Positions 33,224-64,000 of a DNA stretch of 64,000 nucleotides are shown piece by piece. The position numbers and the translations under genes are program-made. This DNA comes from Mycteria americana (Eukaryota > Chordata > Aves > Ciconiiformes > Ciconiidae), in contig NC_134366.1 of NCBI RefSeq assembly GCF_035582795.1, positions 6,554,828-6,618,827 on the forward strand. The letters run 5' to 3'. Position 1 is the stretch's first letter. Each line of letters opens with the position of its first letter. Below the pieces are notes generated by a model. The model ran no database searches. It worked only from the letters and a program-made list of their open reading frames with translations, and was not told where the DNA came from.

Positions 33224-33367
33224 CTAAGCAGAGAAAGGGTGAGATTTTGGTCCAGGAGCTCCAGCAGTTGAGGAAGGAAGCCCGCACCCCGCCTCGGGCA
33301 GCCTTACCTGCACGGTGGTCCCTCTGAAACCAGGAGGGACCCTCAACACTCCTTCCCTCTTACTTAC

Positions 33368-42500: not shown

Positions 42501-44100
42501 AAAATTTTGTGAATGAGTTACATCATGACAAACTTCTATTGCCTCCACATATCTCTTCGTTTGAAACCTTCAAGAGACACAGAAAAAATAGTGGTTTTCC
42601 ATCTGTATGGTGTTCCATCTCCAGCTTCTTGAGATTAACCTGAGATTAAAACAGCACTTTGGACCAAATATCGCACCAGATTTAGAGTTACAATAATTTT
42701 AGAGTTAAAATAAGCATTAAGATAATGAACATGTGACCCCGTGGTGCAATTTTTTTTCTATCTGGACATTTTACTTGGATTAATGCGTATGTTGTGTTAG
42801 GAAACACCCCAGAAAAGAGCTTGAGGGAAAGGTTTTATGCACCTTGGATCCTTACACTTGGTGGGCTCACACGACCCAGGGCTGGGAAATGAGGGCTAAC
42901 GAACAGGCTCGCAGCCATTGCAGTCCCGGGAAAGGCGCCTGTCACGTCCCCATGCCTTTCAGAGCCCAGATGCTGACGTGGCTCTCGGGGACCGCAGGCT
43001 ACTGCTTCAGTATACGTTGTATTTCCAGAGTAAACCAGTACATAAAGATCAATGAACTGAGAGATGAGTAACAACAACTAACACCCCATTTTTTCTGACT
43101 CTTCAGCATGTGACAACATCCCGTTTACTTTTGCTAAATGTTTTAGTTGAATTCTGGCCTTGGCAGTCTGTGTTAAGTATCATATGGGGCTGGGACATTG
43201 CCAAAATAATCTGAACGCTTTCCTTCTAATAAAATATAAATCACATGAGTTACAGCAATGTCTCCTCACATGTTAGTGATCGTATCGTGTCTTGCACTGT
43301 TGTATTACAAAAGGCTAATGCAAAACCAAACAGGTTGTTAACAGATTGTGAAATAAACCTCAGTACTTCCATTTATCGTAAACACCCAATATAGCATAAA
43401 AAACCACTGAACATATACCTGCACTTTTATCTTTTTCCTTGCAGCTGAATTCCTATAGGCAGGTTTTTAGGATCTCATAACACAGAGGAATTTATATGCG
43501 AAATCTTTAAATTGGAGCAACATATTATTGACAAACTAGATGGAATATATGGTTCAAAAGTTCTTGTAATTTAAACACCTGTAAAAGCTTTTCAGCTTGT
43601 CTGAACATGGAGCACAGAAGATCCAAAAGGAAAACCATCTCCTGTGTTACAGGCAAAGATACAGTTTCCAGGAATAACCTTTTACAACTGGGTGCTGTCA
43701 ATGTGATATGTTTCCTCAGTGCAGTATGAAGAATTTGGATGATTCAACTCTTAATTATTCAAAACACCGTTAATCACATCAAGGTCAAGGGGCTCCTTCA
43801 AGTAGCAAAACACGTTACCCACTTTAATATGTTTGATGATTGATGATTAGTTTTGAGCATTCATATAGCTCTATTAAAATCGTTAAGTATTCACATTCAT
43901 GAAGGAGAAGCATGTGATTAAATACTTTGCTGGATCAGGACCAGAGTGTCCAGCTAGTTGTAGTTTCACACTGCTATTTCCCACTATTGATTTGACTATA
44001 CTGAAAATCTTGGGAAAGGAGCAAAATGTCAACAATTCAAATTACTCATGCACGTCATAGAATTCAAAGAGCAAGTCTTGAAACATAATGTCCTTTTTAT
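39546..44100. other. Unassigned DNA downstream of the TTC21A remnant
   Basis: The last exons of TTC21A (about 100 residues, with an AYEYMGFIMEKEQ-like segment) should lie here if conserved, but I could not find them on the minus strand. No other gene or recognisable transposon was seen. Confidence 0.4.
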
Positions 44101-44103: not shown

Positions 44104-44215
44104 CCTTTAACAGCAGAGTAGCTTGATCTTGCCTCCAGATTCTGCAGAACATCCAGTACATAATTCAATCTCTCGTTTCAGTTTTTTAAGTAACTGTTGT
44201 GCTCGCAAGCAGTTT
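44104..44215 (-). pseudogene. TTC21A: Possible fragment of the following TTC21A exon
   Basis: The minus strand contains RAQQLLKKLKREIE, comparable with the family's KARMQLKRLAK, and a possible donor AAAG/GTAAAT. Surrounding frames are interrupted by stops. Position is right, similarity is short. Confidence 0.3.
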
Positions 44216-44681
44216 ACTGAAATCCACAGTTTTCATAACTCTTAAGAGTTATGGGTGTGATTTTCTACATGCAAATAAACCGTATGCTTTAGAAAAATTA
44301 GTCTATGCATCTTTATAAATACTGGTATTCCTAACTCCACTGAAATCAATGGAAAAGTTTAGTATTAATGACATCAGAATCTCACCCAGTGTGTTTACTG
44401 GAGAAGCTCGCTTTGACTTTAAGTAAAGATGAAAAAGTACAAAATAAAGAGCACACATTCTGTCTTTTTTAGTCCTTACTCAACATGGAAAAAAGTAGTA
44501 AACACATTCATATATAAGTATTTTAATATACTTATTAATTTAATTTCAAAGCTTTTAGTTTAAAGTTAAGAAGAAAATGCTATTCATTGTGAAGAAAAAG
44601 CAGGTAAAAAAGCAAAGCAGGAGTCTATTAGCAATTTATAGCAGGAAGGAATGTGAATGAAAAGATCTTAAGGAGTCTTAC

Positions 44682-44878
44682 CTCATTTTTTGCCATTTCT
44701 ACAAATACACTGAGAGCATTTTCTACATAGTGTATGCCTGTAGTAGCCATTAAACAGTAGTTCTGTAATGTCTTTAGCTGATTTTTGGCCCTCTTGCAAA
44801 CAAGGACAAAACTCCTTTAATAATTTTTCTGCTGTTCTTATGCCCTGTTGCACAGCTTCCTTCTTCTCATCTAAATTA
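44682..44878 (-). pseudogene. TTC21A: TTC21A exon with +1 frameshift
   Basis: The exon (acceptor TGTTACAG, donor GAG/GTAAGA) first reads NLDEKKEAVQQGIRTAEKLL and KEFCPCLQEGQ. A different frame then gives LKTLQNYCLMA and YVENALSVFVEMAKNE, matching LRIMENYCLMAT and the following helix of the family. The switch occurs around an AAAAA run at 44790-44781 and corresponds to one extra base. Confidence 0.85.
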
Positions 44879-45499
44879 CTGTAACATCAAATTCTATATG
44901 GCATTTCCTAGTTTATCAAATAGTCAGTAATATAAAGCAATACACATCTTTGTCTGTAAATTCTGACTACTCCATATGTAACCAGAGTGGTTATGTATTT
45001 GTTTTTCTAAGTATCTCATAAATCACACTGTTTCCCAGACCAGAAATGAATCACCTTAAACTGCTACTATTTGTGTATCTGTTCTATAGCTAATGTCATC
45101 CTACTCCAGGTCTCACACGCATGGCAGTTTTCAGAAGTGCTACATTTTCCCTTAGTTTTAAAATGAAAATACATTTAAAAAGAATTGTTATATATTAATA
45201 TTCTATTTCTAGGTATGTTATCAATATGTACGTTTGCGGTTTTGCTGTACATAAATTCACGGACTCAAGATTGATAAATCTTTATCTCAGCAGTATGCAC
45301 AGGGGATACATATAAGTTACCCTCCTCTGTTTTCCCTCATTTCTTCTTTCTCATGTCATTCATGCTGGTGTAATAAGAAAGGCACACACCCTACAATGTC
45401 GGTTTCTCTCAACATCAGAATTTCTGGAAAAATACTTACAGTCCCAAAGCAAGACATGTAGGAAAATACATACAAAAACATATCTCAAAGAATAGAATT

Positions 45500-47400
45500 T
45501 CAGCCAATTTCAGGAAACTCAACATAAAGAGCAGGAAAAGGCTGAGCGCCTCCACCTGTGGATGCTGAGATGGCAGCTAACTATTCACAACTGATTGGTG
45601 GAGATGCCCATCTAGTTTAGCTTCAGTTAACCGTGTTTGCAGTGGCTAGCATTTCAGGCGAACCGATAAAAGCACCTGAGATGACAGAAGTTGACAGACG
45701 TTGTGTACTCGGATGCACAGCAGAGCAATTTTTGACTGAGGATCAGAATTCCTCTTGCTGAGAAGTTGCAGGTGTGCTCTCATCCAGAAGGACAACCAAC
45801 ATAAGCACTGTTGAACAGGGACAGCAGAGCCTGGGATGGCAATTCTGGCCTGAAACAACCACAAGAAGACGTGGAAGGAAGGGCAGGGCTCTTGGACTTA
45901 CTGGATACCCTCGAAACAGAAGAAGGTTCTTGGCCAAGAGTAAGATCAGCTGAAACTCTACTAGCAAACCCCACTTGGCAAGGGTCCTGAGTGCACCAGC
46001 AGGTGCTGCAACCCCGTCCTCACATCCCCTGCGTGTCCAGATGCCTGTGTTCAGGGTCAGCTCTGATATAGTGGAGCTGCAACCTTGGATCAGACTTCTG
46101 TGGAAACTGCTACGTTGTGAGAAAATGCTGAATGAGAAAAAAAACCCTGAGAAGCCTCATCTGGGGCCATACCCATTGGGCCTGCTGGCCTTGGTCCTTG
46201 CTTGAGCTATGTTGCTTAGGACACAATTCCCCATCCCTTCTTCCCCTCCCCATTTCATGGTCATCAGCTTTAAACAGATTAGCACTGTCACTAATATGTC
46301 TGAAGCTCTTGGCAAGTCACTCATTGATAAACTTGATGCTAAATGCTGCTTGTTGGTAAAGAAGATAGGAACCTTCCAGTACCTTATTTATTGATATTAT
46401 AGCAGTGATATTACCTGTTACTACATGTGGTTGGTGGATCTTCTTCATGTAGAGCTTTGGGATATTCCCAAGCATGACAAACTTCGAGGTTTCAGGTCAC
46501 TGGGGTGAACCTTCCGACCAAGCAAGGAGGCATAACTATTAACTAGGGTAGCAAAGATAATTCGAAAGGCATTCTGATATATCCTTTCTCCATGTTTGCC
46601 ATTGATAAAGAAAATCCCAGACTTTCTACAGAAAAGGCATATTAATGCTGATCAAGTGATGAAGCGATCAGGAGAGTTGGTACACTGACCAACTTCATGC
46701 TCTGCATCTTCAATATCACCCAGTCCAAGTCAAAGCCAGCACTCCAGATGTTTAGTTGGTTCAAAAGGAACTTTGCTACATTTATCTTGAGACCCAGAGC
46801 TCCTTCTACGCCAAGAACTAAACAGCACCAGAGCAAAGGGCTTGGCATTGCCTTCTGTTGTCTATATTGTGAAACTGTTTGCACGGTTCCTGGTGTGGTT
46901 TTGCCCCATGTCAGCCACCACAGCCTCAGACAATTCCTGGTCACATTTTAGTGTATAATATGGGCCAGGAACAATTCCAATTGGCAATTGGGACTCACAC
47001 ACTCCGGTTTAGAAATGAAATATTTTAATCCCATGGATGTGAGCTGTGTCTTGCCAGTTGGCCTCAGGAACAAAGAATGGGTGCCACCCATTTGATATAC
47101 CAATAGACTCAGAATGAATTTTTTTGTCATCTGGAACTCTGTCCAGATGCCTCCTTTTTAAGCCTGCCGCTGATGCAAAGTGAAGCAATTACTCTTCTCA
47201 CCCTCAAGTTTCTGACAAGAGGTATCACCTTTTTGAAAAGTCTGAACGCAGAGGCAATGGTGATACGTTGTTCTCTCCCTGGAGAATAACGGGATAACTC
47301 ATGGAAAGTGGTGAATCAAAACAGTCTTTTGCAGAGTGCAAGAACTTGGTTTAGGCATTGAAAAGGACTCTACAAAAGGTGCTGTACTTGACAATTAAAT
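45500..47400. other. Unassigned DNA in a TTC21A intron, possible relic repeat
   Basis: The stretch has several interrupted open frames on both strands (for example minus-strand 46944-46642) with no recognisable family. Its more even base composition, compared with the AT-rich surroundings, suggests an inserted element or a decayed processed copy, but I cannot name it. Confidence 0.25.
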
Positions 47401-47630
47401 GAAAATGCACAGGAAAACCTCAAGACAGCAGCAAACCTAACTTACAGACATCCCTACAGGTAGAAGTCTTGGATTTGATAGAGGCAAAGCATTGCTCAGG
47501 AGTGCAGTCTTAAGCCAAAAAATGGAAGGAATGGCTAAGTTCACCAGAGCAGAAAAATCACTTCCATAAGTTATAAAAAGTCTGTCAGAAAAGTTGTGGT
47601 CATGTGGCACATGAAGAGCCAAAGTCCAAG

Positions 47631-47739
47631 AGGATTTAGACAAATCTGAATCGTATCGTTGATAGCTCTCTGGCCCCAGTCACTGCTCTTTCTAGCTTTG
47701 TTAAAGTATTTCAGAGCTTGATCAGATTGTCCCGTGTGC
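47631..47739 (-). pseudogene. TTC21A: TTC21A exon encoding ALKYFNKARKSSDWGQ
   Basis: After GGTAG, the exon reads HTGQSDQALKYFNKARKSSD, WGQRAIN and IQICLNP, matching HIGQPNEALKFLNKARKDSTWGQ and QICLNP of the family. Similarity stops abruptly after CLNP at 47631, where the following bases are CTTGGA rather than a GT donor or the expected DNEVVGGE. Either the donor is mutated or the rest of the exon is deleted. Confidence 0.85.
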
Positions 47740-50159
47740 CTACCTGAAAAGAATAGAGGGTGATCAATCTTCTCAATATGAAATTTCCATATTTACCTAT
47801 ATAAAGCACTACAAAAAAGAGAGGTTTTTTTAGAAAAAGATAATTTTGAAATATTTGTGGTAAGCATACCTCTGTGTACAAACCTATAAACAACAAGTGT
47901 ATGAATTTCTTCAGATAGATGTTTAATTTATTTTATAATATATTGATGGATGTACAGATTTTCCCATACATATGCAATCCTTTAATTTATAGCTTCACAG
48001 TTCTTACAGTTTTATACATCATGTGCTTGCCAGTTCTGATGCACAGATTAATGCAAAATCAACCATTTAAAAAAGAGACAAATCTGGCACCAACCATGTA
48101 AACTCTGCTAATGAAGGAGGAAGTTAGCCCGGGAAAAGAATGAGTTTGTTTACTTTTCCCCAAGTACCACAACTCTTGCATTGAATCATGACTGCTTGAG
48201 TACCTAGTTTCTGCTTATATGCTTAGACAAAGAGTGCTTCTGCAATTAATGAAGTACTTTTGTTTAGGAGCTGAATGAATTTAAACTCTGTCAATGGTAT
48301 GTGTTGCTGGAAACCTGCCAATTCAAATCTCTCTCTGGGGACACAGATGCTTACATTTCTCCAAACTTCTACCTTAATGTCAAAGTTGATGCTCTCACTC
48401 TCACCCTGAAATCCGAGCAAAACCACGAGCTTTACTAAATGCACAATGTGCCCTTCACGAAACAGCGAGCAAGAGAACAGATGGGTCGTGCAAGATGTTA
48501 ACTATATTGTTTAACACAATTCACAAAGATACACCTGTGCTACCACGATGCTGACAAATAAAATAGTGAAGAGCAATATTGATAAAGAACAGCATTTCCT
48601 TTAACAACTGAGGTCTAGAAAGAACCCCTTTGAGCAACTGGCAAGGATAATTTATAATTAGAGTAGCATACAGCATTAGGGTATTGGCTCATGTGCTCTC
48701 CAGTTACGGGTACTTACATAGCTCAAAACTGATGACTGGGCAAGCTCCGTCAGCTGTGCCAAGGCTAATGTTACATACCCGGTTTAGCTGCTCTAATAGC
48801 TTGTTGCTACAAAAAAAGTGACTTGTTATCACTCTGTTCCTGGCAACAAGGTCCTTACTTGCCTTGAGCTCTGGAACTTTTCCTCTCATATGGTAAAATG
48901 ATTTGATTCTCTAACGCAGGGAAAATATATTCATATTTTTGCTGGTTATTTCTCTGTCATTTTAGAAAGCTGACTCAGGCAGGTACAGAATTGGATGATT
49001 TTCAGAGCCTGTGCAAAGAAGCAGGTCAGACTACGTGGCAAGAAGCAAGGCAGGAGGAAGAGCAGGACCTTACCATTTCAGCACAGCAAGTGCCTGAATC
49101 TGTATCATAAAGTTAGACATCAATGTTCAGAAGTAAAAAAATTGCACATCTCCATAATGAACATTTTAGTAAGTTTTTCATTCAGTGCTGCAAAGACAGT
49201 CCAGTGTAGGCTGAAAGAACTGTCCAATATACTCTCTATTGTGTCTTCACATATTTAATACGTTCCAGTCGCTTATGCCTGTAGAGACCTACTCTGAGCA
49301 ATCAAGTCATAAAGAAATCACTAAAGACCCAAGTTAAACAGATTCTAGTTACAAACTATTTGGGTTTGTGTATTCTGCATTATAAAGTAAAAGGAAAAAA
49401 AACCAAACCCGTTCTTGCTATCAGATTGATTATATAGTCCAAATTAGTTTTATTCAATTGTATTTTGATATATCATTTACAGACACACATTAGATGTGAA
49501 ACCGTATAATTATAATCTCTCATTTTAAATCCAAATGCCAAGAAGATCTAAAGCCAAAAAGTAGTCTAAGAACTACCTGGACTTACGTATAGAACTGGAA
49601 AATGGGTAAAAATGCAAATTTGTAGAATATAGAGGTCATGTATAAATGTGTAGAAAATGTTTTGAGATCCCCAAAATAAAGAGATGCCTTTTACAGTATG
49701 TTAGAGGACTTATTTGAATTCTCTTACTGACTACATTATAGAAAAAAATCTTGGTCAGAATCCTGGCTTACTGAAATAATTTAAGCCAGGATTTGTCTTC
49801 TAATATTTGCAGATGGAGGACTATGTACAATCAAAGCTCTTGTGTTAAGTATCTGCAGTTGATATATTCAAATCAACATACTTCTCTTCTGTTTGGAGTA
49901 CACTATTTCACTATACATATAGCTTTCCCCACCTTCATGCTCCAGTACTTTCCAGAAGAAGTCTTGACCTATTAAGAAGTTTGTATTTTCACCAGCTTTA
50001 ACTTACAAGCAAATCTGGAAACACTCGTTTCATTTCTGTGCACATGAAGAAATAACATTTAACAAACTGAGCCTTAAAGCAGTCACATAAACTGCACAGA
50101 GGTCCTGCAGCACTGCTCTGAAAATCCTAAATCCACAAATATTCCCTTGCGTGCCTTAC

Positions 50160-50291
50160 CAGCAGTAGAGTTCTTTGCAGTAGTTATATCCAGGTTCCAA
50201 AAATAATCAGGTTTCTTCACCATTTCAAAGAGAAATGTAGTTTTATCAAGGTTACCACTTCTTCTCAGCACATCAACTAATCTTTTTAGGG
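50160..50291 (-). pseudogene. TTC21A: TTC21A exon with internal frameshift
   Basis: The first half reads LKRLVDVLRRSGNLDKTTF and LFEMVKK. The second half, LEPGYNYCKELYCW, is clearly homologous to the family's LEPGFNYCRGIYCW but lies in the next frame. Between KK and LEPG there are 11 bases where the family has 18, a net loss of seven. The donor TG/GTAAGG is intact and matches the phase of the next exon, so splicing signals outlived the reading frame. Confidence 0.85.
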
Positions 50292-50779
50292 CTGAAAAGT
50301 TACCGAAAAATTAGAAAGCAATAAAGTAGATTTTATCTCTACCTTACAACAATTCAGATGCTTTCAAATCTGGCAAAATTTAAATTGTGACTTAAATCAT
50401 GAAGAATCTTTTTGTTTTGGGGCACGTGATTAATAAGATACAGCAATACTGCTTATCTCTTGGGAAGAGGGTAAGGTCTTTAAAAGAAAAAATGGCAGAG
50501 CCACAGAGCCAAAAAGAATTGCTGAAAAAGAATAGATGTTGCTAATATTTCCAGCTTCTTGAAGTAGAAAGCTCTTCCAGAAAACTTCAGATCTATTCAT
50601 ATTCTACATATGACACTACAGAAAGTCCTGAGAAATCCTGGATTTTACTCAGAAGGGGAAAATTTTGTAGGTGAAATTAAGAAAACAGAGTTTTCACATT
50701 TTCATGAGTTCGTTTTTTAAAACTTGGAGTGGAAATCTGAACAAACACACAGTCTTCAAGCTTATTTAATGTTATATAC

Positions 50780-50861
50780 CTGGTGATTTTTCCACAACAT
50801 TCTCATAAAGGTTTATTGCTTGTTCATACTTCTGTTTCCTGAACATGAGATCTGCCATCAT
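50780..50861 (-). pseudogene. TTC21A: TTC21A exon encoding MMADLMFRKQKYEQAINLY
   Basis: This 82-base exon (acceptor TCCTCTAG, donor CCAG/GTATAT) encodes MMADLMFRKQKYEQAINLYE and NVVEKSP. The segment is almost identical to the most conserved TPR of the TTC21 family and shows no damage. Confidence 0.9.
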
Positions 50862-51279
50862 CTAGAGGATAAAAACTTGTAAAAATAAAAGAAGATGCAC
50901 AAATAAAAAGTCCTACATATGAACTGGCATTAAACAATATTCCAAATTTTGTTCTTTTAAATATTATCAGAATAAATAATAGAAGAACTAATAATTACCA
51001 TACCAAAAAGCATGTGGGACATTTCCACTTTTTAGGAACAGAGAGGTCCAAACCCATTGTTAGGTGTCACACTATAACAAATGGATCAATGTCACTACTT
51101 GGCATACAACTGCCCACAAAAAGCAAACATTTCTTCTATTTTCATACATGTGTCTAGAGTGAACATTTTTTCTGTCCTACAAAGACTATATTTGGGGGAT
51201 ACAGATCTCTGATTTTCATCATTCCATTACTTCACTCCTTTTCTATGACTTTTTCTGGAAAAAAATTAGTGATGCCCAC

Positions 51280-51409
51280 CTATCAGGCCAGCAATTTCAT
51301 TATTAGTACTTTCAGGTAAAAATAGTGTGCTGGTGTGTAGACTGAGAAAACAGTTATTGGATCTTGACAATCAATCATCCAAATTAAAATAAGCCAACTT
51401 CAGTATTAT
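51280..51409 (-). pseudogene. TTC21A: TTC21A exon with in-frame stop
   Basis: The acceptor TTCTCAG and donor ATAG/GTGGGC bracket 130 bases that read ILKLAYFNLDD, stop, LSRSNNCFLSL and later STNNEIAGLI. This corresponds to MLELAQLYL.QDD...C..C..LL and NHETASV of the family. The stop codon TGA lies at 51373-51371. The exon's end phase does not fit the next exon, indicating a further indel. Confidence 0.55.
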
Positions 51410-52431
51410 CTGAGAACATAAGAAGTAATTAAAAATGAAGTATTTAGATAACAATTTTAATAAGTATCAAGAGCCTCTTATTTTCTCTCTACTGAGTTCT
51501 ATCACAGAAGACAGAAACAGAGTAGATCGATTTTTTCCAACGCAATTTCAATCTACTTTTATAATTACACCAAAGATAGATTTCCCCATTAGCACAACTA
51601 TTGCAGTATCCCAGTAATTATGAATAATCAGCAAAGGATATTCTTTACTGATTTTTCTTGTGCATCATTAATTATCTGAAGTGACAGGGCTAACATTACT
51701 TCTATTATGAACAAACAACTAGAGGAAACATGGAGGGAGTCAAATACAAATAATAATAAGATGGCTGCTCTTCAAAAATCAGTGTAATCCTGGAAAATGT
51801 TAATAGCAGTTCTATTTAAATGAAGCTGCATGGGCTTGCTAGACATTAAAGCTTGTAATATGTTGCGTATCATTAGTTCTCAGTGAAAGCGTAGATGGAA
51901 CTCATATCTAATTCAATGCTATTTTCTGCCAGTTAATGACCCTGAGAATCAAGCATTCACAAATGTAAATGGGAGTTTTTCCAAACCCATACTTTATGGG
52001 CTTTAAGAACTAGCTTTTACTGCGAGTAGAAAACCATACCTGCGCAATTTTCTTTGTTGTAAGTGTGACCCGATTTTTACATTTGCAATATGATACTCTC
52101 TTCTGATGATTTACTATATTACACATGAATTTTTAAATATTTTTCAATTTGATACATTTTACTTAATGGATAAATAAGTACAAAAATGTCTAACATGGCT
52201 GTATTTCCTTTTTGTGTTCGTGTTCCTTTTTGGCTCTTACTCCATTCCAATGTCAGAAATATGATTTAAGAATTCACCCATGGTAATTCAATGGTTTTGA
52301 AAAATCAATAAATATTTCCTTTTCTATATTTTTGAGGACACAACACTAAGAGAAAAATTTCTCTCGCTTACCTTGTATATAGATACTATGAATGAGATGT
52401 TGCCTGAGACTTTAAAAAATACTTTCTTTAC

Positions 52432-52606
52432 TATCTGTTGAAGTATACATTAATGTATTTTTATAGCTTTCAGTAGCTTGTACATAGTCCTTCTGACTCA
52501 GATAGTGCTGGACATTAATCAGTGCTGCCAGCTTCTTCTGAGAAGAAATGGATCCTGGCTGCTCCAGAGGGACGCATTTCAGTGTTCTCTGTTGTATTGC
52601 AAAAGC
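52432..52606 (-). pseudogene. TTC21A: TTC21A exon with the VPLEQP motif
   Basis: After TGCTACAG the exon encodes AFAIQQRTLKCVPLEQPGSI, SSQKKLAAL and HYLSQKDYVQATESYKN, ending D + A/GTAAAG. It matches the family segment ALDLQSRILKRVPLEQP, PSQKQLAASI and HYLAEKNYDKAVQSYKD, with three residues lost before HYL. The frame is open over 58 codons. It is the clearest identification of TTC21A in the window. Confidence 0.85.
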
Positions 52607-53689
52607 CTGTAGCAATGATGAACAGTGTAAGAGAGATTCATGAAAATGAAGTAACAATTGTAACAATTCCTGACAGTTTTTCAGAGCAGTTTCTTTTGTG
52701 GCTGTGCGTTTGGGCATCCACCTGAGGAGTGGACGTCTGCCTTTAAATCACCTTTTCCTGGTCCAAAACAGAGAACTCAATTCAACTCCTACCACCGGAT
52801 TTGTGTCCTAAAAGCCAGGCTGGTATTAAAAGATAAATCTCTTTCAGTCACTGCCCACTGAAGCTCTTCCATTTTGCATAAATAACATATTAACTAGACT
52901 TGTGCAAGCTGACCCGTGCCTGTGGGGAAGGCATGGCCATTGGACTATAATGTCAATATTTTTTTTCTTCCAAGCATGTTTCATACGTAAGTGTGGATGA
53001 CTGAGAATACAGTTAAATAACCAACCATCCATTGAAATATCATGCCTCTTCCTAATGAATAGACGGTTCTCCCCATCTCCTGGCTTGACCCTTTCCTCTC
53101 TTAAGTTCACTTCAATGAAACCCTTTCTTAAAATGCTTAACTCTTCCAGTGCAGTATACGGGGAGACTGATGGGGGCAGATGCAGCTATGAATTCCACCA
53201 CTGCAGTGACTACATCCTGATTTTAGCACTGCTTTTTATCAATGGGTAATTCTCAATGTATAAAATTTACCCTTTTTCAGTATGTCACCCCAGGGATTAT
53301 GGACTTTAAATGGTGTCTGGGATGGTGCTGTCTCTGCAGGCAGGTGAACTGTATTAAAAGAACTATGTTTACATTAAAATTCCTGCTCTATCTCTGAAGG
53401 ATTCACAAATGTATTTCTAATATGAAATCAGTTTCCCACTCACTGAAACACACACATATACCTGGCTCTCACACCACGTACCCTACTCACTGAGTCATCT
53501 GGCTTAATATTTGCCACACGCTGACATACATACCCTCACCCACTCCAGCTGCTGGAACTACAGACACACAAGCCCCTATGACCCATGGTCCCACACCCCA
53601 GTTGCTGGCACTTAGACCTTCATATAGACATCGCAGATGTCCAGGAGAATGGATGAGGGGCTCTCTGCCCCTCACGGAATGGAGAATGG

Positions 53690-54940
53690 AATCACAGACA
53701 ATCAGAATGGAATCACAACCAGGAGAGATAAAAAGGCACGATATCACAACCATCTTCAACACTGAAGATCAAAGGAAGTACAGGCTGGTCAACCTAACCT
53801 CAGTTGTTGGGAAGGTTATGGCACAAATACTCCTGGAAGTCATTTCCAGCCACCTGAAGGACAAGAAGGTGATTGAGATCAGCCAGTATAGATCTACCAA
53901 GGGAAAATTGCACCTGACCAACCTAACTGCCTTCCATGATGAGATGGCTGGCTGTGTGGACAGGAGGACCGCAGCAGATGTTGTGTATCTTGACTTTAAC
54001 ACAGAATCTTTATAGCCAAATTGGTGACATATGGACTGGAAGACTAAGTAATAAGGTGGACAGGTGGATTGTCAGGTCAATTGTGGCCAATTACTAGTGG
54101 TATGCCTCAGGTCAATACTGTTCAATACCTTTATTAACAACCTGGATGATGGGACAGAGTGCTCTCCCACTAAATTTGCAGATATTACCCAACCAGGGGA
54201 GTGGCTGATATGCTGGAGGACAAGATTGCTCTTCAGAGAGAGGTAGACAGGCTGGAAATGGGCTGGCAGAAACCTCCTGAAGTTCAACAAAGGCAAATGC
54301 AAAGTCCTGCCTCTGGGATGGAATAACCATGTGCAACTGTGCAGGCTGGGGAATGGCTGGCTGCAAAGCAGCTCTGCAGAAAAGGATCTGGGAGTCCTGG
54401 TGAACAACAAATTGAACATGAGTCAGCAGTGAGCCCTTGCAGCAAATAAAGCCTATCACGTGTTGGGCTGAATTAGCTAGAGAGTAGCCAGCAGGTCAAG
54501 GGAAATAATTCTCCCCCCCGCCCTATTCAGCAGCTGTTAGACTGCATCCCTGAAGCAGTGTGTCCAGTTTGGTGCTTCCCAGTGCAAGAAAGACACTCAC
54601 ATACTGGAACAAGTCCAGTACAGGGCTACCAAGAAGATAAGGGGGCTGGAGCCTAGAGAGTTAATCAGCTTGCCCTAAGTATAAACCCATATTTTATCAG
54701 CAGAATAAGTCTTTAGACTCCCTTGGGAGTGATTCAGTCACACATAGGCTTACACAGACATTTTAAGTGCCCCAGAATATCTGACACATCCTCACTGGGC
54801 TGGCAGTCTGACATAGGACCTATGTCTAGACATGGTCCTGCGCAACTGGCTCTAGGCAGCCCTGCTTGAGCACTGGGGTTGGACAAGGTGACCTCCAGAG
54901 GTCCCTTCCAGCCTCAACCATTCCTTGATTCCATGGGAGA
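53690..54940 (+). mobile_element. CR1 LINE fragment with reverse-transcriptase core, plus strand
   Basis: The plus strand encodes YRLVNLTSVVGKVMAQILLE, then KGKLHLTNLTAFHDEMAG and VVYLDFNTESL: the reverse-transcriptase palm of CR1 with several later frameshifts and stops. The 3' end shows the CR1 terminus TGACCTCCAGAGGTCCCTTC near 54890-54910. About 160 bases (54655-54815) in between do not look like CR1. The element lies in the gap where the central TTC21A exons would be expected. Confidence 0.85.
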
Positions 54941-57840
54941 CCCATTCACTTCTGAAGCTTTGAGGTAACTTAATCCAAACACTATTCAACTTATTTCAAT
55001 TTGCTGATGACTGTATTACTGCTTGACTGCTATCAACACAGTTAGGCTGCTCCTTCATCAAGCAGCGCAGCTTAAACGGTGGAACATTTCCAAGAGCTCT
55101 GTTTGTACAGGAAATACCTCTGCCTACCAACCTGAGCAGTTGTGATAGCACTGGCACGCTGCTACAGTAACGGAGACAAAAGAACAAATTGCTTAGTTTC
55201 TGCAAGTCTCAGTGATAAGAAAAATAAGACTATTAAAGACGTGTTATGCTATACTGCTATACTAAATTCAGTTGCACCCTAGAGCTTTGGAAACACCACA
55301 ACTTTCTTTACCAGTGAACATCAATATGTTATTTACATTACATGGGGATTCTCTCTCGTGAATACAAGAAGGAGCTTGAAACCCACTTATGACTGTTCAC
55401 CAAAATCAACAAAACTGGATACAACTGACCCCCTGCCTCTGCCTGGCAACTTTTATGTGTAGAAATACCTTTATTTATGCTTTGCCAGGGTTGCAATTCT
55501 TCACAAGTTCTGTAGAGGTGATACTTCTAACAAGGTGATGATCATTTACATTTTTAATGTATGATGTACATATGAAAATGCTGTTTTATCATTGTTACGG
55601 AGACAATTGCTTTCAGAATTCCTGTTCACGAGCATCCTGTGCATGTCTTCAAAGAGGTATAAACAAATATGACTGAAGATCTTAACAGATTTATTAATAT
55701 TTGCCAGTGAAATAGATAATCTTGTCAGATACAAAATCATTCAGGACTAAATTCAGCTGCTCACAGGTTGGCATCTAGCGTCCCTGGAGATCCCCCAAAC
55801 TACGTGAAGTGAGGGCTTACCTCCTTCTTCCCCTGGGAGCTGCTTTTAAGCTGAGGCTTTACCACCAGCCCCAGCCTGGGCTAGACTGCAGCAGCGCAGC
55901 AGCTGTGTCTGTGCCCAGTCTCGAACTGTGGCCCTGACCTGGATTCGTTGGCTTAGCCAGCTAGAAGAGGAAAGTGCTCAGGCCCTAACACCCTGCCGAT
56001 CTCCGACACACTAGGCTGCCCCAAGTTCCAGTAGCTGTCCAGTGCAGACAGGTGAACCAAGCCCTGGCCGGTACGGTCAGTGGAGTTTACAATGCTGTTG
56101 ATCTGACTTAATGTAGGCGTCTACTTTAGGTGAGCTGAACAATTCTCCACTTTCTAGACCTCCATCGACTATAATGGGAGCTTTGACACCTAAAGCTCAA
56201 GTCATTTACCTGCACGTAGCTGTCTTGTACCATCTGAGATGCCACACAGTATCTCACCTCGCTTTCAGGCACTGTTGCAGAAAGGCACTAGCATCCTGTC
56301 CTTCGCGCGTAACAGCTAACAGTCTTGTTCAGATGTCTCAAGTACCCTAAGGCATCTCAGCTGGCACTGAAAACCTGTGGTTAAGCAAATGAATTAGGAC
56401 CACAGGCATTATATAGATTACAGGCATTATACAGACATCTTAACATTGACCTGAACACCACCCTAATAAGCACTATTCCACCCAGGACAATAATACTGCC
56501 AGCAAGTAGTTTCCAACTCAATGTCAAGTTCACTTTTTTTTTTTTTCCCAAAACAGATCAAGCCATAAAATGTATCTTTTGAAGTAAGTTTAGCATCTTT
56601 AAGAGATGGACAAAACCACTTTTTCAGGACAATAAAGGTCCTGTAAATCATCTGCACAAGTTTGAGAGGAAATTAATCTCCTTAAGAAAATGTAGTTTAA
56701 ACAAGTTCGATCTACTAGATGCTCTTCCTCTTATTTTTGCATAATGAATTTCTGTAATCTGTCCTCAGTAATGCTTAGTTTCTATTCCCCATCATTTTCA
56801 CCAAAATGTTACTGCTTCTTTAGGGTCAACTTCTTTGATCATCTTAAAATTTATTATAGGAATATTAATATACAAATATTTTAGATTGATAATGACCAAA
56901 GAATTAATCTTCCATGAACATTTTTCATCCTTCTTGATTTTTCTAACTAAACTCATTCACAGAATTTCCTCTGGATTGCAAGCTTGCTTCTGAAGCTTAC
57001 TGAGTTTAGACAGTATAACATTTGAAAATCTGTACTCCTTTGAAATTTTGAATTTGAACGTTTACTCCTTTATAATTTCTGATGAGTTCTACAGAAAACA
57101 CTTCCGAAAGAGGCCAAAGATCTTTATTCACACTACACAATACTTCTGCCATACTGAACGATTACTTGTACAATGGGGATGAGAAATCCTTAATTATAAG
57201 AGCTACAGCCGAGAAGTGCCTGTTTTTCTCCACTGACAGAAAAAAAGGAACCTATGACTAACTCAGCTGCAGCTTTGTATACTATATCTACATATCTAAA
57301 TGTATTCTAGAACGGTCAGCACACATTTCCTGTATCAACTTTCATTTCCATAGGAACCTTTAGAAAGGACTGATATTGCAAGAAGGCTGTAATTGCTAAG
57401 CATACAAAGAGCTTTGGAAAATACGCATTTCAAGTTTACAGTACTCTGCAGAATCTGTCAGTTCTGTATTACATTGGTTTAGTTTCATTACCATGAATGA
57501 TAAATGACATTTCTTTCAAAATTCAGTATCTGCAAAAGCAAAGATATCATTATGTGAAAATGCGGTAACACTGCATTATTTCTAGTGGCTTAAAGCCCTA
57601 TAACAATCAGAATATATTTCTAATGACCGGCCAATTGTTATGTTTTTAACCTTGCATTACCAATTAGCTGGTTTTTATCATGCACTGACTTTATTATAAA
57701 AAGAAAATCCTCTGTTGACAAAGTATTTTGGAGAATGCCTAAAATATATCTCTTAGTCATTTACTAACAATCCTATTTTCACTGTCTAATACACAATTAA
57801 CAGAATAAAATTTAAAAAGTAAGGTTTCGAAAATTATTTA
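54941..57840. other. TTC21A: Non-coding stretch lacking expected TTC21A exons
   Basis: In a complete TTC21A many exons covering residues about 240-900 would lie between 52.6 and 57.8 kb. I found no convincing one. A minus-strand open frame at 56657-56463 contains SLKDAKLTSK, faintly like NPHDASLASR of the family, but this is too weak to call. Confidence 0.35.
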
Positions 57841-57841
57841 C

Positions 57842-57997
57842 TAAGAAACTTGACAACCAGTTTCATCCACCAGTTATGGAGTAGCCAGTTTTGACAACAT
57901 CGGTATGCAGGTAGGTAACCTTTGTAAAGTGTCACGGATGTGACCGGACAGTCCTCTTCGTATATTTTCAGAAACTCTTTTAAATGCAGACTGTTTC
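57842..57997 (-). pseudogene. TTC21A: Probable diverged TTC21A exon
   Basis: The acceptor TTGTACAG and a possible donor A/GTAAAT bracket an open stretch containing LKEFLKIYEED, GYLPAYR and LLHNWW. The order fits the family segment FLPA....L.LA.QDW, with shared LPA and the Trp. Divergence is high, so the call depends mainly on position and splice sites. Confidence 0.4.
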
Positions 57998-58104
57998 CTG
58001 TACAACACAATTCATGAGGAAAGAAGAATCACAGAAGGAAACACAGGAAGAAGAGGCTTGAAATTCTTCTTAAACTCCTTGCACCTTTTTCTCAGTAGGT
58101 CAGG

Positions 58105-58195
58105 ATTTGCCTCTTAGTGGAGCAGTCTGTAAGACCTGTTCAGAAAGCCTTTTAATTCCAGACTCCTTGCCCCTGGCATATAATTACATCAAAGT
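58105..58195 (-). pseudogene. TTC21A: Possible remnant of the next TTC21A exon
   Basis: On the minus strand GIKRLSEQVLQTAPLRGKS followed by a TGA resembles the family segment AIEYLEQGIQDTKDVLGLMGKA and lies in the right order. Similarity is weak and splice sites are not clear. Confidence 0.25.
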
Positions 58196-58532
58196 AGCTC
58201 CAAAGTTACAACCAAAGGTAAGTAGAACTGATGAAACAGTTTTACCCCCAACAATTAGTTTATTTTCCCACTGTAGAAAAAAATAATAAACATTCTTCCT
58301 CATCAGAAAAAGAGTTTTGGACTAATGTAGAAATATCCACTAAAAAAAAAAAATCAGTTAATTTCCCCAGATTTTATAGTAAACAAGAAATGTAATCTAG
58401 ATAATTATAATTTTAGGTACAGTATACATTAGTTTTTGCATATTTATATTTTCTTATGTTTGGCTAAAAGTCTGATGATCTCATTTGACTTTTTAAATAG
58501 TGAGAACTTCTGTCTTGTTCTGGATGAAATAC

Positions 58533-58698
58533 CATTTATACACTACCTCTCTAGATCCAGGAGACATTTTCAGCATTCTGTCAAGTCCTTCATAATTTTT
58601 ATCCATTCGCCATAAAAACATTCCTGCATAATATAATTCATTAGTCCCTGCATTTTTCCTGTTTCTTTTGTTTTGCAGCTCTAAAGCAGCTTCACAAT
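58533..58698 (-). pseudogene. TTC21A: TTC21A TPR exon (ELYYAGMFLW segment)
   Basis: The exon follows TTTTTAG and ends TG/GTATTT. It encodes ALELQNKRNRKNAG, ELYYAGMFLWRMDKN and DRMLKMSPGS. This is the family segment ALYYASLFLW.TGR.DKAREYIERMLK, but three residues are missing between the LW and RMLK parts and two more near the end. In-frame deletions in a normally rigid TPR helix pair suggest relaxed constraint. Confidence 0.75.
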
Positions 58699-60239
58699 CT
58701 AAAAACAAATATTCAAATACAAATGTGGTAAATGTGTTAAATTTTGAAAAGTCATGTAATGACAAAACCAGTCAAATGAAACAAGCCTCCTAATCCTTGA
58801 AACACGTGTAGGTAGCTTCTTAGATTGTGTTACTGAAATCAAAATTATTCAGCATTTGCCAGACTGGCAAGTAAATTAGTAAGCTTTTCTCCTTTAGAAA
58901 TTATATCTTTAAAAAATGAATTATTTTTGCACAAAGGCACGCTGAAAAATAATATACAGTTCTCCACTGATATAGAATGTAAATCTCCCATCACCTTGTA
59001 TGGGACTTCAGCTCAGTCCCGACTGCTGTTGAACCTCGGGTCACTCCCATGTGAGCTGCAAGTGTTTTGTGTCTTTCAGGATCCCTGTGTTCCTAAAATT
59101 TATTACTTCTAATAGAAGAAATAGCTATTAGTTCGTGTTCTCCTCTAGTGCATGAAATACTCTTGTGCTGATGTTCTAGAAACACCCATGCAACCCTTCA
59201 AAATAAATCTTTAGTGTAGTGCAGAATCATCTTCAAGGTAGCTACATGAAAATAAAACTGGACTTCTTTTCATGAGAATACCATAATGAGATGAATACGA
59301 ATTCTCCTATGCAATGCTGTTGTTTAATAATTTATTGAAGTCTCGGAGCTTTCTGCAAGTTGACAAATTGAATATGCAAGCACTGCTTAAGTGTTGAACA
59401 AACACAAGCTAAATTATTTTCCTAAATAAACAAAAATGTGTTGTACAAGAGTGGTCCAGTGCAGATTAGATTTTTTCAGTAATTCTAGTGACAGCAGCGC
59501 TACTTTTGGTACTATTTTGTTTAGCTAATTAGACAAAATATTACTTAAAACATACCTACATTTATCCTAGAATATTTTTCATTCTACAGCTCCTAATTTA
59601 ACCTGGATAAGTGGATGAAACACTGGACTAATGTATCACCAAGTTTCTGACTGTTGAAACTTGTGACAAGTCATACGTAAAAAAAACCCCCAACCCCTTA
59701 TCTATATTTTTACACCTTTTGTCTGCATAAATAAGTTCCAAAAGACAACACAATGACACACCAGAATGGTTCTTTCTGGCTTTTCCTCACTGTAAGACAG
59801 GACCTTGCATTTGACCAGCAGAGATGTTGCAGATGGATGGTTGATTCAGATGTTATTAGCAAACACCAAAAAAGTTATTTGTATAAATGAATTCCGAGCC
59901 ACAGTCTAACTAGGTAGTTTGTTTCATTTGCATACTCTAGCACAATAAGCTATTCTCAGTGCATGTGTTTCTAGATAGCTCTGTAAACGACGTGGAATAG
60001 CAAGGAGTAAAGAGCTATGAGCATTAGCATTAAGAACAGCTGTGTTGGGCCAAACCAAAGCTACATCTAGCCCACTCTCAACCTGCAACAGCAGCTCTAA
60101 AGCACCTATCAAGGACTAAGACTGGGACACATGTAAATGATACTTCCTTCGGGGAGTCTTCCAGCCTTCAGATGGCTTCAGCTCAGAAAATATCTTTTCT
60201 TGTATTGGTGTACTTATTGGTCCTCCCCAGATTTGGGGC

Positions 60240-60352
60240 ATTTTAGGGACATGGTATAGCGGTGGTCTTGGTAGTGTTAGGTTTATGGTTGGACTCAAAT
60301 GATCTTAAAGGTCTTTTCCAACCTATACAATTCTGTGATTCTGTGATTTTTC
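60240..60352 (+). mobile_element. CR1 3'-end fragment, plus strand
   Basis: A short fragment ends GGTCTTTTCCAACCTATACA followed by ATTCTGTG ATTCTGTG ATT, the eight-base terminal repeat typical of CR1. Only about 110 bases are recognisable. Confidence 0.8.
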
Positions 60353-61880
60353 TTCAGTGAAATTGTCCACTGCCTCCTTGGGTCCAAATAAACTCTTGGC
60401 ATCACAATCTCCTGTGGCAGAGAGCTGCAGAACTCAATTAACTGTTACATGAAAAATCACGTCTTTTTGCTTACTTTGAAGGTGTGCCCTCATAGTTTCA
60501 ACAGTTCCTCTGTTATTCAATTGAAAGAGAGCAAACGCTCAGTTCCTGACTACCCTCTCCATACCACAAATGACTTTATAGCACATTCTCTCTTCAGTTG
60601 TCTCTCTTCAAATGAAAAAGCCTTAGTTCACTTATCATTCCCTACGGGGTAACTAGCGATACCTTTAATCATTGCTGCTGCCCTTTTTCAAGCTTTCCTA
60701 TTGCTATTTTTTTTTTAAATGGAAGGACAAGATGTTGGAAAACTATGAGTTTATACAGTAATTCAACAATGTCCTCTTTCTTAGTCTCCATTGTTTTCCT
60801 GATAGTTCTTAATAATGCATTTGCTTTTTGGCCATTTCTGATTTCTGAAATGACACTTTGTAAACTCTACATCTCACTTCAGACTGTTGCTGAAGAGCTC
60901 AAACCCCATTATTTCACATGTGGATTTAGTCAGGATTTTTCCCCACACGTATCATTTTATGTTTACCTACACTTCATTATACCTGTGGTTTTATTGCCCA
61001 CCTAATCTTCTAAGATCCTTCTGCAGTTCTGCAATTGCTCTTTAGTTTTGCTATTCTGAATAATCCCATGCCACCAGTACATGTTGTCATCTCACCGCTT
61101 ATCTCTTTTTCCAGGACTTTTAGAATATGAAGAAGAGCAAGGTCTAACCATTTTTTTTGATAACTCTTTGGATGATCTTTCCAAGCAGCAGGAGTGATCA
61201 TTCACTCCTATCATCTACTTCTTATCTTGTAACCATTCATCTGAATAAAGATATCTTAGGTATTGCTGCTTAGCTTCCTTGATAAGCCCTTGACAAAGCT
61301 TTGATAAGGGACTTTTTGAAATCTAAACGGCCAGATCACTCCTTTCTGTATGTTTGTTAACGCCTTTAGGAACTCTAATACATGTGTGAGACAGGACATC
61401 CCTTTATCAGATCCACATTGACTCTTCCCAAGAATATAATACTTGGGTACCCACTAAAACTATTATTTATTATAGCTTCTATTACTTTGTTGACAGAGGC
61501 TTATAGACCTCCCCTTCAGATCTCAACTAGAATCCTTTTTAAAAAATAGGGTATTTGCTACTTCCTAGTCCCCCGCAGCCAATGTGCTTTTAAGCAAGAA
61601 GTTCAATAGAACTGTTTGTAGGTGTGCTGTCTCATTCCTGAGTCCCTTGGAAGAGATTGGTACCACCTATACCTGAAGAGGTAAGTACCACCTATTCCTG
61701 CAAACTGTTATTGTTCATTTTGTCTGTTCCATAGTCTCTTTGACCTTCACCTTAATTTAAGACAGATGTTCTGATGAGTTCCCTACAAAGAAAGGTTTGG
61801 GGATGGGAACCTCCTCACTATCTTCCATGGTAAACACAGATGCAAATAGTTCCTGTAGACTTTGTTTGCTATGGTCTTAT
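60353..61880 (-). mobile_element. Ancient CR1/L3-like LINE relic, minus strand
   Basis: The plus strand follows the order of reversed CR1-type reverse-transcriptase sequence known from reptile and bird genomes: a TTAATAATGCATTTGCTTTT segment, then AGATCCTTCTGCAGTTCTGC, then CCACATTGACTCTTCCCAAG, then a truncated 5' part. It is saturated with stops and indels. Much more diverged than the other CR1 copies here, it probably predates most avian CR1 subfamilies. Confidence 0.65.
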
Positions 61881-62714
61881 ATTTCCTAGGTACTCATACT
61901 GGGATAGACTCTTTGGCATCTACTTTTGGTATGTCTGAAGAAAGATTTCTTATTTCTGTTATTTGTAGAAATATAATTACATGGGCAACATTGCAGTTCA
62001 TCATTGGCACACCTGTTGTAAATGATGCTCTGAAGAAAAAGAATTTAAGAAAAAATATAATTATGTGATAAGGTTCCCAAATATGTAGCAGAAAACACAG
62101 AAAAATGACACAATTTTATTTTTTTCTGAATGCCTACGTGCACTTCTACCATAAGCTCAATGAATGCGATGCACAGATATGCAATCACAGCTTAGAGATA
62201 ACACCGGAAAAAGGTTACTTAAAAAGGCTCCTGAGAATATCCTGGCCTTTCTTTGGAGAAAAAATGAGCCAGTATGTATGGCTTTTGAGCATAAATAGTT
62301 ATTCAAGTGACAGGGAATTTAAGAGTTTCACTTGGAAGCAAAGGCAGAGGATGGAGAAGGCAGCTTTTTTTCTCTTCTCTCTTTATGCATCGCACTTGAA
62401 CCACAGAAATTATGTGGACGGATCCTTTGGAAAAATGACATCTTGGAGGTGAGAGCAGTAACTACCAAGGAGTTTTACTAAAATGGATGCTTTTATACTG
62501 AATGAAAGTACGTATGCAGGAAATATAACTACATTATAACACTTTAACTACATTAATATAATAATGCTTCAAATTGTTACTATTACTTTGAAAACTTTCA
62601 GAACTTTTCCATTAGTGAGTTAAAGGCAGAATCAGAATTCATCCTAAGTAAACCAGAGTGGAACAGAGATGAAATTTCAGGGGAATGGAAATATCACCAC
62701 TTCTTAATAATTAC

Positions 62715-62832
62715 CTAAACACAAGGCTCCCTGTGTCTTGAAAAACAGCAACACTGGACCATTGATTTGCTTCTTCAAAGTCTGAAAACTTCTCAGCTGG
62801 TGGAAATACTTTTCTTGAGTGCAATACATAAT
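62715..62832 (-). pseudogene. TTC21A: TTC21A exon 2 remnant
   Basis: After GGCATAG the sequence encodes IMYCTQEKYFHQLRS and PVLLFFKTQGALCL, then a G/GTAATT donor. It matches the N-terminal segment INYYCQ..Y, DPV..FF.AY of the TTC21 family with one residue missing after Ile. The frame is open over 39 codons. The first exon, expected in the CpG island to the right, could not be fixed. Confidence 0.65.
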
Positions 62833-63705
62833 CTATGCCTACGGGGAAGAACAGAACAGAAACACTTGCTCTTTTGAAATGTGCAAATTAGGTATTGGTA
62901 GAAAATAATAATCTCTTTCTGGAGTATACTAACAGGAGTATAATTTTTAAAAAGCTGTTAGAATGAGAACAGTAGTCAACTGTTTTTTTACAGAGATTTG
63001 TAAGAATATAGGTGGAAAAAAAAAGAATTTATAACTGAAAGTCTGTTTCTGCCAAAAAAAAGGCTCTGAGACCCAAACCGCCATCCGGCTGCACGCCGGC
63101 TGCTGGAGGGGCTGCCCCGGCTCGGCAGGGAGCATCCCGATCCTCATTCCAAATGGAAGCAGCTCAGGGCATTCCGAGCACCGGGAGAGGCCGAGGGGAG
63201 AGCGAGGGCCCACCGCCTGCCTGCCTTCCCTCCCCGGGAGCGGCGCCTGGGTCTCTGCCTCCCTCCGAGGGGCCGGGGGGGGGGGGGGAGCCGCAGCCCG
63301 GCTCAGGGCTGTGACAGATCCTCTGCGGACCAGACAAGCCCTGACCAGGCTCAGCGACCCCCGCACCCCCCCGCTTCTCCTCAGCGCTGCCCCCGGCCGC
63401 CGCTCGGCCCTTTCCCGCCCAGAGACCGGTGGGAGCCCCCGCCGCTCGCGCCCCGCCCTCCCGCAGCAACGCCTCGCTTCCCCCGCCCCCTCCCCGGTCG
63501 CTAAGGGCGTCAGGCGTCACGCGCTCCGCCAGCCCGGCAGGGAGTGGAGTAGAGCGAACGCCTGCTCCCCTCTGCCGTGTGCGGGCGCTGCGCTCGGCGC
63601 TCGCTTGCTCAGGCCTGCGACGCCCTCATCTGGGGGAGCGGCGGGAGGGCGATGCTCGTTGCTGTTGCCGCAGCTGCCTGAGTGTCCCGTCCCGCGGCGG
63701 TGGGC

Positions 63706-63768
63706 ATGGGGCTGGGCTCCAGCTCCGAGGTCCCTGACGGCGGCGCCGAGGGCTTCCACGTACACGGG
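63706..63768 (+). CDS. GORASP1: Golgi reassembly-stacking protein 1 (GRASP65), exon 1
   Basis: The start codon at 63706 opens MGLGSSSEVPDGGAEGFHVH plus Gly (21 codons), followed by donor GTGAGG at 63769. Human GORASP1 begins MGLGVSAEQPAGGAEGFHLH plus Gly, identical in length and exon end. GORASP1 is a peripheral cis-Golgi protein that links cisternae through its PDZ-like GRASP domain. Gly2 is the N-myristoylation site and is conserved here. The other exons lie beyond the window. The divergent neighbour and CpG promoter support the call. Confidence 0.92.
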
Positions 63769-64000
63769 GTGAGGCGGCCGCCGCGGGGGCGGTTTCGCGG
63801 GAGGGCCGTGAGGGGCGGCGGGCGCTGGGGGGGGGCGGAGGGGTGTCTGGCGGGGCGCGGGGTCCCGCTTCCCCCCCTCTGCTGTGGTGGCTCAGGCAGG
63901 CCGAGCCCGGCACGGGAGAGGGCGCTGGGCTCGGGGCGGCAGGCCTGTCGGCCTCGGGCTCCCTGGTACCCACTTGTTGGCCCCTTCCAGGGAACTGCCA
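63769..64000 (+). other. GORASP1: Start of GORASP1 intron 1
   Basis: CpG-rich sequence after the GTGAGG donor continues to the window edge with no further exon. Confidence 0.8.

What the first reader, a model, noticed from the sequence alone, without database searches (positions are those of the whole stretch)
44104..62832. TTC21A appears to be a unitary pseudogene in this species
Nine exon-sized segments with clear or fair similarity to TTC21A occur in the right order and strand, at the syntenic place. They carry two frameshifts, one in-frame stop, missing or altered splice donors, and a large gap where the central half of the protein should be. TTC21A serves sperm flagella and cilia in mammals, so its loss would be of interest for avian sperm biology.
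Basis: partly seen in the sequence, partly recalled or inferred. Interest (0 to 1): 0.8.

Follow-up and report, generated by a model that had tools for sequence, protein, structure and literature searches.

The report
Wrecked TTC21A gene in wood stork
A gene that mammals use to build sperm tails, TTC21A, lies broken beyond use at its ancestral place in what appears to be a wood stork genome; in the protein collection searched, the only birds listed with an intact copy were ostrich and tinamou, so it was probably lost early in the history of most living birds.

Summary
Confirmed and extended. The window (wood stork, Mycteria americana, inferred from an exact contig-length match) holds the wreck of TTC21A on the minus strand between CSRNP1/a trypsin-family gene and GORASP1. 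Seventeen units are not detectable. The remnants carry 3 in-frame stops, 5 frameshifts, 2 truncated exons, and 6 of 21 splice sites lost. In a tree the remnant sits beside ostrich+tinamou TTC21A on a long branch. The paralogue TTC21B looks intact; an N-terminal profile search of the genome found no other TTC21 locus. So the loss is probably neognath-wide, like the published losses of STK33, CatSper and CDKL3. Shared lesions in other neognaths, testis RNA and a whole-protein search of the genome were not obtainable here.

The parts
62715..62838 (-). TTC21A remnant unit e01 (ostrich residues 26-67); acceptor AG and donor GT present; in-frame TAG at 62835-62833 where ostrich has Tyr26
   Evidence: score 128 vs decoy max 51; 27/39 aligned residues identical to ostrich; edges and stop read
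59702..59815 (-). remnant unit e02 (residues 68-105); in-frame TGA at 59789-59787; acceptor reads TG instead of AG, donor reads AT instead of GT
   Evidence: 130 vs 62; 26/38 identical
58547..58698 (-). remnant unit e03 (residues 106-161); two in-frame codon deletions; splice sites AG/GT present
   Evidence: 155 vs 50; 35/51; Pfam ARM_TT21_N 5.6e-5
52607..58546 (-). interval where e04-e18 should lie; none detectable; holds stretches similar to a dispersed repeat elsewhere in the window
   Evidence: 15 units at decoy level, or (e13) best match elsewhere; blastn matches at 54360-54638 and 54825-54938 to window 37.1-37.4 and 36.7-36.8 kb
52427..52606 (-). remnant unit e19 (residues 872-934); 3-codon deletion; acceptor AG present, donor lost (GA)
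   Evidence: 213 vs 45; 45/60; Pfam ARM_TT21_4th 1.4e-9
50780..50861 (-). remnant unit e21 (residues 972-998), the one unit with open frame and both splice sites and no gap
   Evidence: 117 vs 38; 21/27
50160..50303 (-). remnant unit e22 (residues 1000-1049); frameshift (-1) near 50212, TGA at 50209-50207; acceptor AG lost (CG), donor GT present
   Evidence: 191 vs 48; 39/48; Pfam ARM_TT21_5th 2.1e-4
47631..47739 (-). remnant unit e23 (residues 1052-1085); last 17 residues and donor missing; acceptor AG present
   Evidence: 156 vs 40; 29/34; Pfam ARM_TT21_5th 1.2e-9
44682..44878 (-). remnant unit e24 (residues 1103-1167); frameshift (+1) near 44783; both splice sites present
   Evidence: 237 vs 49; 48/65
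43086..43225 (-). remnant unit e25 (residues 1168-1214); frameshifts (+1) near 43170 and (-2) near 43094; last 28 residues and donor missing; acceptor AG present; outside the interval given
   Evidence: 143 vs 51; 34/47
42522..42567 (-). remnant unit e27 (aligned residues 1292-1306); an apparent 24-nt in-frame deletion (by eye); splice sites AG/GT present; outside the interval given
   Evidence: 65 vs 39; 12/15
42363..42438 (-). remnant unit e28 (residues 1307-1330) with frameshift (-2) near 42401, then TAA stop at 42365-42363; acceptor AG present; outside the interval given
   Evidence: 69 vs 42; 15/24
63706..63771 (+). start of GORASP1 (exon 1), divergent neighbour in a CpG-rich stretch from about 63.0 kb
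   Evidence: N-terminus recognised by recall; downstream exons match Pfam GRASP55_65 (8.2e-16 and 6.4e-5); CpG values
16480..19047 (+). CSRNP1 coding exons, convergent neighbour on the far side
   Evidence: Pfam CSRNP_N 1.7e-43 and 2.3e-21

Best explanation
The locus is a unitary pseudogene of TTC21A, the IFT139-type paralogue of TTC21B. Shown here: the parent gene was the orthologue that ostrich and tinamou still carry; in this assembly it has lost 17 of 28 exon units to detection, most of them in one central gap, and its remnants carry stops, frameshifts and broken splice sites, so no TTC21A protein can be made from it as it stands. Inferred: loss of function came early on the neognath line, before most living orders of neognaths arose, and the locus has since decayed with little or no selection. 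Inferred mechanism of tolerance: TTC21B, which looks intact here, covers ciliary IFT-A function, and the special demand on TTC21A in sperm-tail building fell away in neognaths, whose sperm tail sheath is reported as simplified.
For: Orthology: in an IQ-TREE on the aligned sites the remnant joins ostrich+tinamou TTC21A, with support 100 for the three birds against the rest and 100 for ostrich+tinamou without the remnant; FastTree agrees (0.988, 1.000); identity 331/446 to ostrich TTC21A against 210/445 to stork TTC21B. Synteny: CSRNP1, trypsin-family exons, GORASP1. Lesions: 3 stops, 5 frameshifts, 2 truncated exons, 6 of 21 splice sites lost, 17 of 28 units not found. Constraint: at sites invariant in seven working TTC21As the remnant deviates at 35/201, ostrich 4/205 and tinamou 6/207 by leave-one-out; stork TTC21B 5/324 over the same exons. 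Remnant branch 0.238 against 0.039 and 0.091 for ostrich and tinamou on a 0.049 stem. Unitary: PF25062 over the genome gives 5 matches at E<=1e-3, all within 7 kb on the TTC21B contig. Breadth: best 120 of 966 hits to ostrich TTC21A contain two named bird rows, ostrich (5 members) and Nothoprocta (13 members), and two unnamed rows at 60-61% identity; best 120 of 650 for the remnant query contain the same two bird rows; best 120 of 733 for TTC21B contain 39 neognath rows from 33 species. Function: TTC21A loss causes sperm-flagella defects and male infertility (passages of PMC9984195, PMC11506864); Thm2 deletion alone gives no overt structural defect in mice (passage of PMC9149932).
Against: No reads, RNA or second assembly were seen. 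The genome test used an N-terminal profile only, and the whole-protein search did not complete. The invariant-site excess is not decisive on its own: working human TTC21A (45/246) and Varanus (27/228) deviate as much or nearly as much, over much longer separations. Neognath absence rests on capped lists, on proteins of 0.55-1.75 times query length, and on clusters whose 13 and 5 members I could not inspect. e21 is intact and 15 of 21 splice dinucleotides survive, which is more than I would expect of a very old wreck; a loss well after the neognath stem is not excluded.
Confidence: 0.93

Rival explanations
1. A stork-line or Ciconiiformes-only loss: other neognaths keep a working TTC21A that the protein collection does not show.
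For: No other bird DNA could be read; the lists were capped and the two palaeognath clusters could hide members. Intact e21 and 15 of 21 surviving splice dinucleotides would suit a younger loss.
Against: The lists reach down to 59% identity and include many mammals and amphibians; a working neognath protein of near full length should rank above them, and 33 neognath species are listed for TTC21B. The long branch speaks against a recent loss.
Confidence: 0.12
2. Several independent losses within neognaths after they split into orders.
For: Nothing here shows shared lesions. A rough age from the branch length, with recalled neutral rates of 1.2-1.9e-9 per site per year, is some 55-90 million years and so does not fix the loss to the neognath stem (inference).
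Against: One early loss is simpler; STK33 shows a deletion shared by all 28 neognaths analysed in PMC4509753 (passages).
Confidence: 0.25
3. A degenerate duplicate or retrocopy, with the working TTC21A elsewhere or missed by the assembly.
For: The whole-protein genome search did not complete, so only the N-terminal profile bears on this.
Against: The remnant is spread over 20 kb with intron-exon structure, so it is no retrocopy; it sits in the ancestral neighbourhood; the profile search found only the TTC21B locus.
Confidence: 0.03
4. A short but working gene that kept some exons with new splicing.
For: e21 and several splice sites are intact.
Against: Stops or frameshifts in 6 of the 11 units (e01, e02, e22, e24, e25, e28), and truncation of e23 and e25. 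No Rfam match in the window either.
Confidence: 0.02

Closest known systems
STK33 pseudogene of neognaths (PMC4509753, abstract and passages seen)
   Same: Working in palaeognaths; in the 28 neognaths analysed there, remnants at the syntenic place with exon losses, indels and stops; STK33 acts in sperm-tail assembly (PMC11276731 passage, PMC10245119 listing).
   Different: Different gene and pathway (kinase, not IFT-A); shown there in 28 genomes with transcript searches, here in one genome with protein-collection support.
CatSper genes in birds (PMC6660944, passages seen)
   Same: Of the birds sampled there only two palaeognaths (Apteryx australis, Tinamus guttatus) keep CatSper; pseudogenes reported in chicken and zebra finch.
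   Different: Ion channel of the mature sperm tail rather than an assembly factor.
ANT4/SLC25A31 remnant in chicken and other birds (PMC3155547, passages seen)
   Same: Testis gene reduced to a fragment with a stop and a 2-bp frameshift at the syntenic place; loss dated before the Galliformes-Passeriformes split.
   Different: Palaeognath status not stated in the passages that I saw.
CDKL3 (PMC12075339, passages seen)
   Different: No sperm role stated in the passages that I saw.

Membership tests
TTC21A orthologue | Branches with TTC21A, not TTC21B, and with other birds | tested here: met
   Tree support 100; 331/446 identical to ostrich TTC21A, 210/445 to stork TTC21B
TTC21A orthologue | Sits between CSRNP1 and GORASP1 in opposite orientation to both | tested here: met
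   Pfam CSRNP_N and GRASP55_65 on the flanks, plus strand; remnant on minus strand. The human order is recalled
Unitary pseudogene | Multiple disabling lesions in the only orthologue | tested here: met
   3 stops, 5 frameshifts, 6 of 21 splice sites and 17 of 28 units lost
Unitary pseudogene | No working copy elsewhere in the genome | tested here: inconclusive
   PF25062 search finds only the TTC21B locus; whole-protein searches unanswered
Unitary pseudogene | Not transcribed into a working mRNA | not testable with these tools
   No RNA data
Neognath-stem loss (STK33 type) | Working gene in palaeognaths | tested here: met
   Full-length proteins of Struthio camelus (1330 aa) and Nothoprocta perdicaria (1303 aa), 86% identical
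Neognath-stem loss (STK33 type) | No working gene in neognaths | tested here: inconclusive
   No neognath row named in the best 120 of 966 or of 650 hits; capped lists, cluster members not visible
Neognath-stem loss (STK33 type) | A lesion shared across neognaths | not testable with these tools
   No other bird genome could be read

The most novel reading that the evidence does not exclude
TTC21A went on the neognath stem as part of a joint dismantling of the sperm-tail programme (with STK33, CatSper and others) that left neognath sperm without the ribbed fibrous sheath which emu and tinamou keep; birds then offer a natural experiment on which IFT-A functions TTC21A serves that TTC21B cannot.
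Probability: 0.3. Interest if true: 0.75.

Novelty: new member of a known kind. Interest (0 to 1): 0.55.

Why it matters
TTC21A is counted among genes whose loss gives malformed sperm tails and infertility in humans and mice. If some 10,000 neognath species build sperm without it while ostriches and tinamous keep it, then its need is conditional, and the palaeognath-neognath contrast makes that condition testable. It adds an IFT-A gene to a small set of sperm-tail genes already reported as lost in neognaths.

Tried and rejected
A TTC21B origin of the remnants was rejected (tree and identities). e13 at 46.4 kb was rejected as out of order. An earlier weak tblastn match to e18 within 52783-52427 was not kept, since e18 alone scores at decoy level and a splice acceptor precedes e19. 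The finding's first 600 bases (44104-44681) gave no TTC21A match. Rfam search of the window gave 0 matches. Pfam found nothing in three ORFs that I took by recall for LINE pieces. No codon-level (Ka/Ks) test was made, as no coding DNA of ostrich or tinamou was at hand. Paper searches for TTC21A with birds (4 papers), pseudogene (6), chicken (11), avian (3) and gene loss (2), and a mixed search (25 listed of 79) showed no paper on TTC21A loss in birds in their listings; supplementary lists of missing bird genes were not readable, and subscription papers are not held.

Full report
Where the window lies. It is G000:C2:6554828-6618827 of a 1.35-Gb assembly. A TTC21B protein of Mycteria americana (P0032) is recorded on a contig of 44,957,592 bases, exactly the length of G000 contig C9, on which I find TTC21B. 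I therefore take the genome as wood stork, a neognath of the order Ciconiiformes; this is an inference. The window has no N.

Neighbourhood. CSRNP1 lies on the plus strand (Pfam CSRNP_N, 1.7e-43 and 2.3e-21), trypsin-family exons on the minus strand at 32.75-33.58 kb (E 3e-4 and 9.5e-4, weak), and GORASP1 on the plus strand beyond the right edge (GRASP55_65, 8.2e-16 and 6.4e-5), with its first exon at about 63706 read by eye. By recall this is the neighbourhood of TTC21A in mammals. A Chelonia mydas record, P0151, carries TT21 domains and a trypsin domain together, perhaps a fused model of two neighbours.

The remnants. Exon units were taken from stork TTC21B (28 units read by eye, joined) and carried over to ostrich TTC21A by alignment, so unit edges are transferred, not observed; a short first coding exon was not sought. 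Each unit was aligned with frameshifts allowed to the minus strand of 63500-42200 and to 20 decoys. Eleven units (e01, e02, e03, e19, e21-e25, e27, e28) are found in order with scores of 65-237 against decoy maxima of 38-62. Sixteen are at decoy level. One (e13) beat its decoys by a point but lies out of order and is counted as not found, which makes 17 of 28. Over the 11 units 331 of 448 aligned residues equal ostrich. Tblastn with ostrich or tinamou TTC21A found nothing at E<=1 on the reversed window; with tinamou one chance match (E 0.49) appears at 32.4 kb on the true window.

Lesions. In-frame stops: TAG in e01 (62835-62833), TGA in e02 (59789-59787), TGA in e22 (50209-50207). Frameshifts: e22 near 50212, e24 near 44783, e25 near 43170 and 43094, e28 near 42401. 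The last 17 residues of e23 and 28 of e25 have no match. Of 21 splice sites of these units, 15 keep AG or GT at the expected place; six are lost (e02 both, e19 donor, e22 acceptor, and the donors of e23 and e25 with the exon ends). One unit, e21, is intact with both sites. The original stop codon, TAA, survives at 42365-42363.

Is it TTC21A, and is it decaying? In an IQ-TREE (LG+G4) on the aligned sites of 18 proteins and the remnant, the three birds stand apart from all other TTC21A with support 100, and ostrich+tinamou from the remnant with 100; FastTree gives 1.000 and 0.988. The remnant branch is 0.238 against 0.039 (ostrich), 0.091 (tinamou) and their stem of 0.049. At sites invariant in the seven TTC21As used, the remnant deviates at 35/201. 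By leave-one-out the working genes deviate at 4/205 (ostrich), 6/207 (tinamou), 11/212 (alligator), 1/202 (Caretta), 2/203 (Pelodiscus), 27/228 (Varanus) and 45/246 (human); so the excess is clear against its sister birds and nearer reptiles but no larger than in human, which split much earlier. Stork TTC21B over the same exons deviates at 5/324 against six outgroups. A rough age from the branch, with recalled neutral rates, is 55-90 million years; I put little weight on it.

Unitary? PF25062 (N-terminal TT21 domain) over the genome gave five matches at E<=1e-3, all at C9:23153524-23160783, which is TTC21B. One of these rows counts a TAG inside; it lies at the 5' edge of the exon, where the open frame starts, and I read it as intron. 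The same call's control rang in 6 of 14 prokaryote genomes, so the profile also catches other TPR proteins; it still found no second TTC21 locus here. Whole-protein and further family searches of the genome did not complete.

How far does the loss reach? The remnant query (11 pieces joined, X-padded) gave 650 proteins at E<=1e-3; of the best 120 shown two are birds, Struthio camelus (1.2e-147) and a Nothoprocta perdicaria cluster of 13 (1.7e-135). Ostrich TTC21A as query gave 966, and of the best 120, down to 59% identity, the same two are the only named birds; two rows (P0263, P0267) have no name, at 60-61% identity. By contrast the best 120 of 733 hits to stork TTC21B hold 39 neognath rows from 33 species and 6 palaeognath rows from 4 species. 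Limits: only the candidates sharing most words were scored; proteins under 0.55 of query length are not candidates; cluster members are not shown. I conclude that loss across neognaths is likely, not shown.

What it means. Passages of PMC9984195 and PMC11506864 state that TTC21A loss or mutation gives malformed sperm flagella and male infertility; a passage of PMC9149932 states that Thm2 (Ttc21a) deletion alone gives no overt structural defect in mice but interacts with Thm1 (Ttc21b). Birds with only TTC21B would then keep cilia. PMC4509753 (abstract, passages) reports STK33 intact in three palaeognaths and a wreck in all 28 neognaths analysed; PMC6660944 (passages) reports CatSper only in two palaeognaths among the birds sampled; PMC12075339 (passages) reports CDKL3 lost in Neognathae but not Palaeognathae; PMC3155547 (passages) reports ANT4 broken in chicken, turkey and zebra finch. 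PMC11276731 (passages) says that emu and tinamou have ribs and longitudinal columns of the fibrous sheath and Neognathae lack them. Against a simple link, a table passage in PMC8812575 calls the passerine outer fibrous sheath prominent and uniform. A joint loss of sperm-tail parts on the neognath stem is thus a hypothesis that these reports suggest and that this locus adds to; no test of it was made here.

Noticed in passing
window 4508-6120: Degenerate GC-rich minisatellite (periods about 18, 55, 74 and multiples) beside a GC-rich stretch upstream of the CSRNP1 coding exons.
   Followed up: no
window 32751-33581, minus strand: Two open exon-like pieces of a trypsin-family protease, elastase-like by recall, between CSRNP1 and the TTC21A wreck (Pfam Trypsin 3e-4 and 9.5e-4); whether the gene is intact was not tested.
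   Followed up: partly
window 54360-54938: Within the central gap, two stretches 71% and 80% identical to 37.1-37.4 and 36.7-36.8 kb, a dispersed repeat, CR1-like by recall.
   Followed up: partly
window 50861-50780, minus strand: Unit e21 keeps an open frame and both splice sites among otherwise broken neighbours; probably chance.
   Followed up: no
window 23676-23894: TTTAT pentanucleotide array, 44 copies, 92% matches.
   Followed up: no
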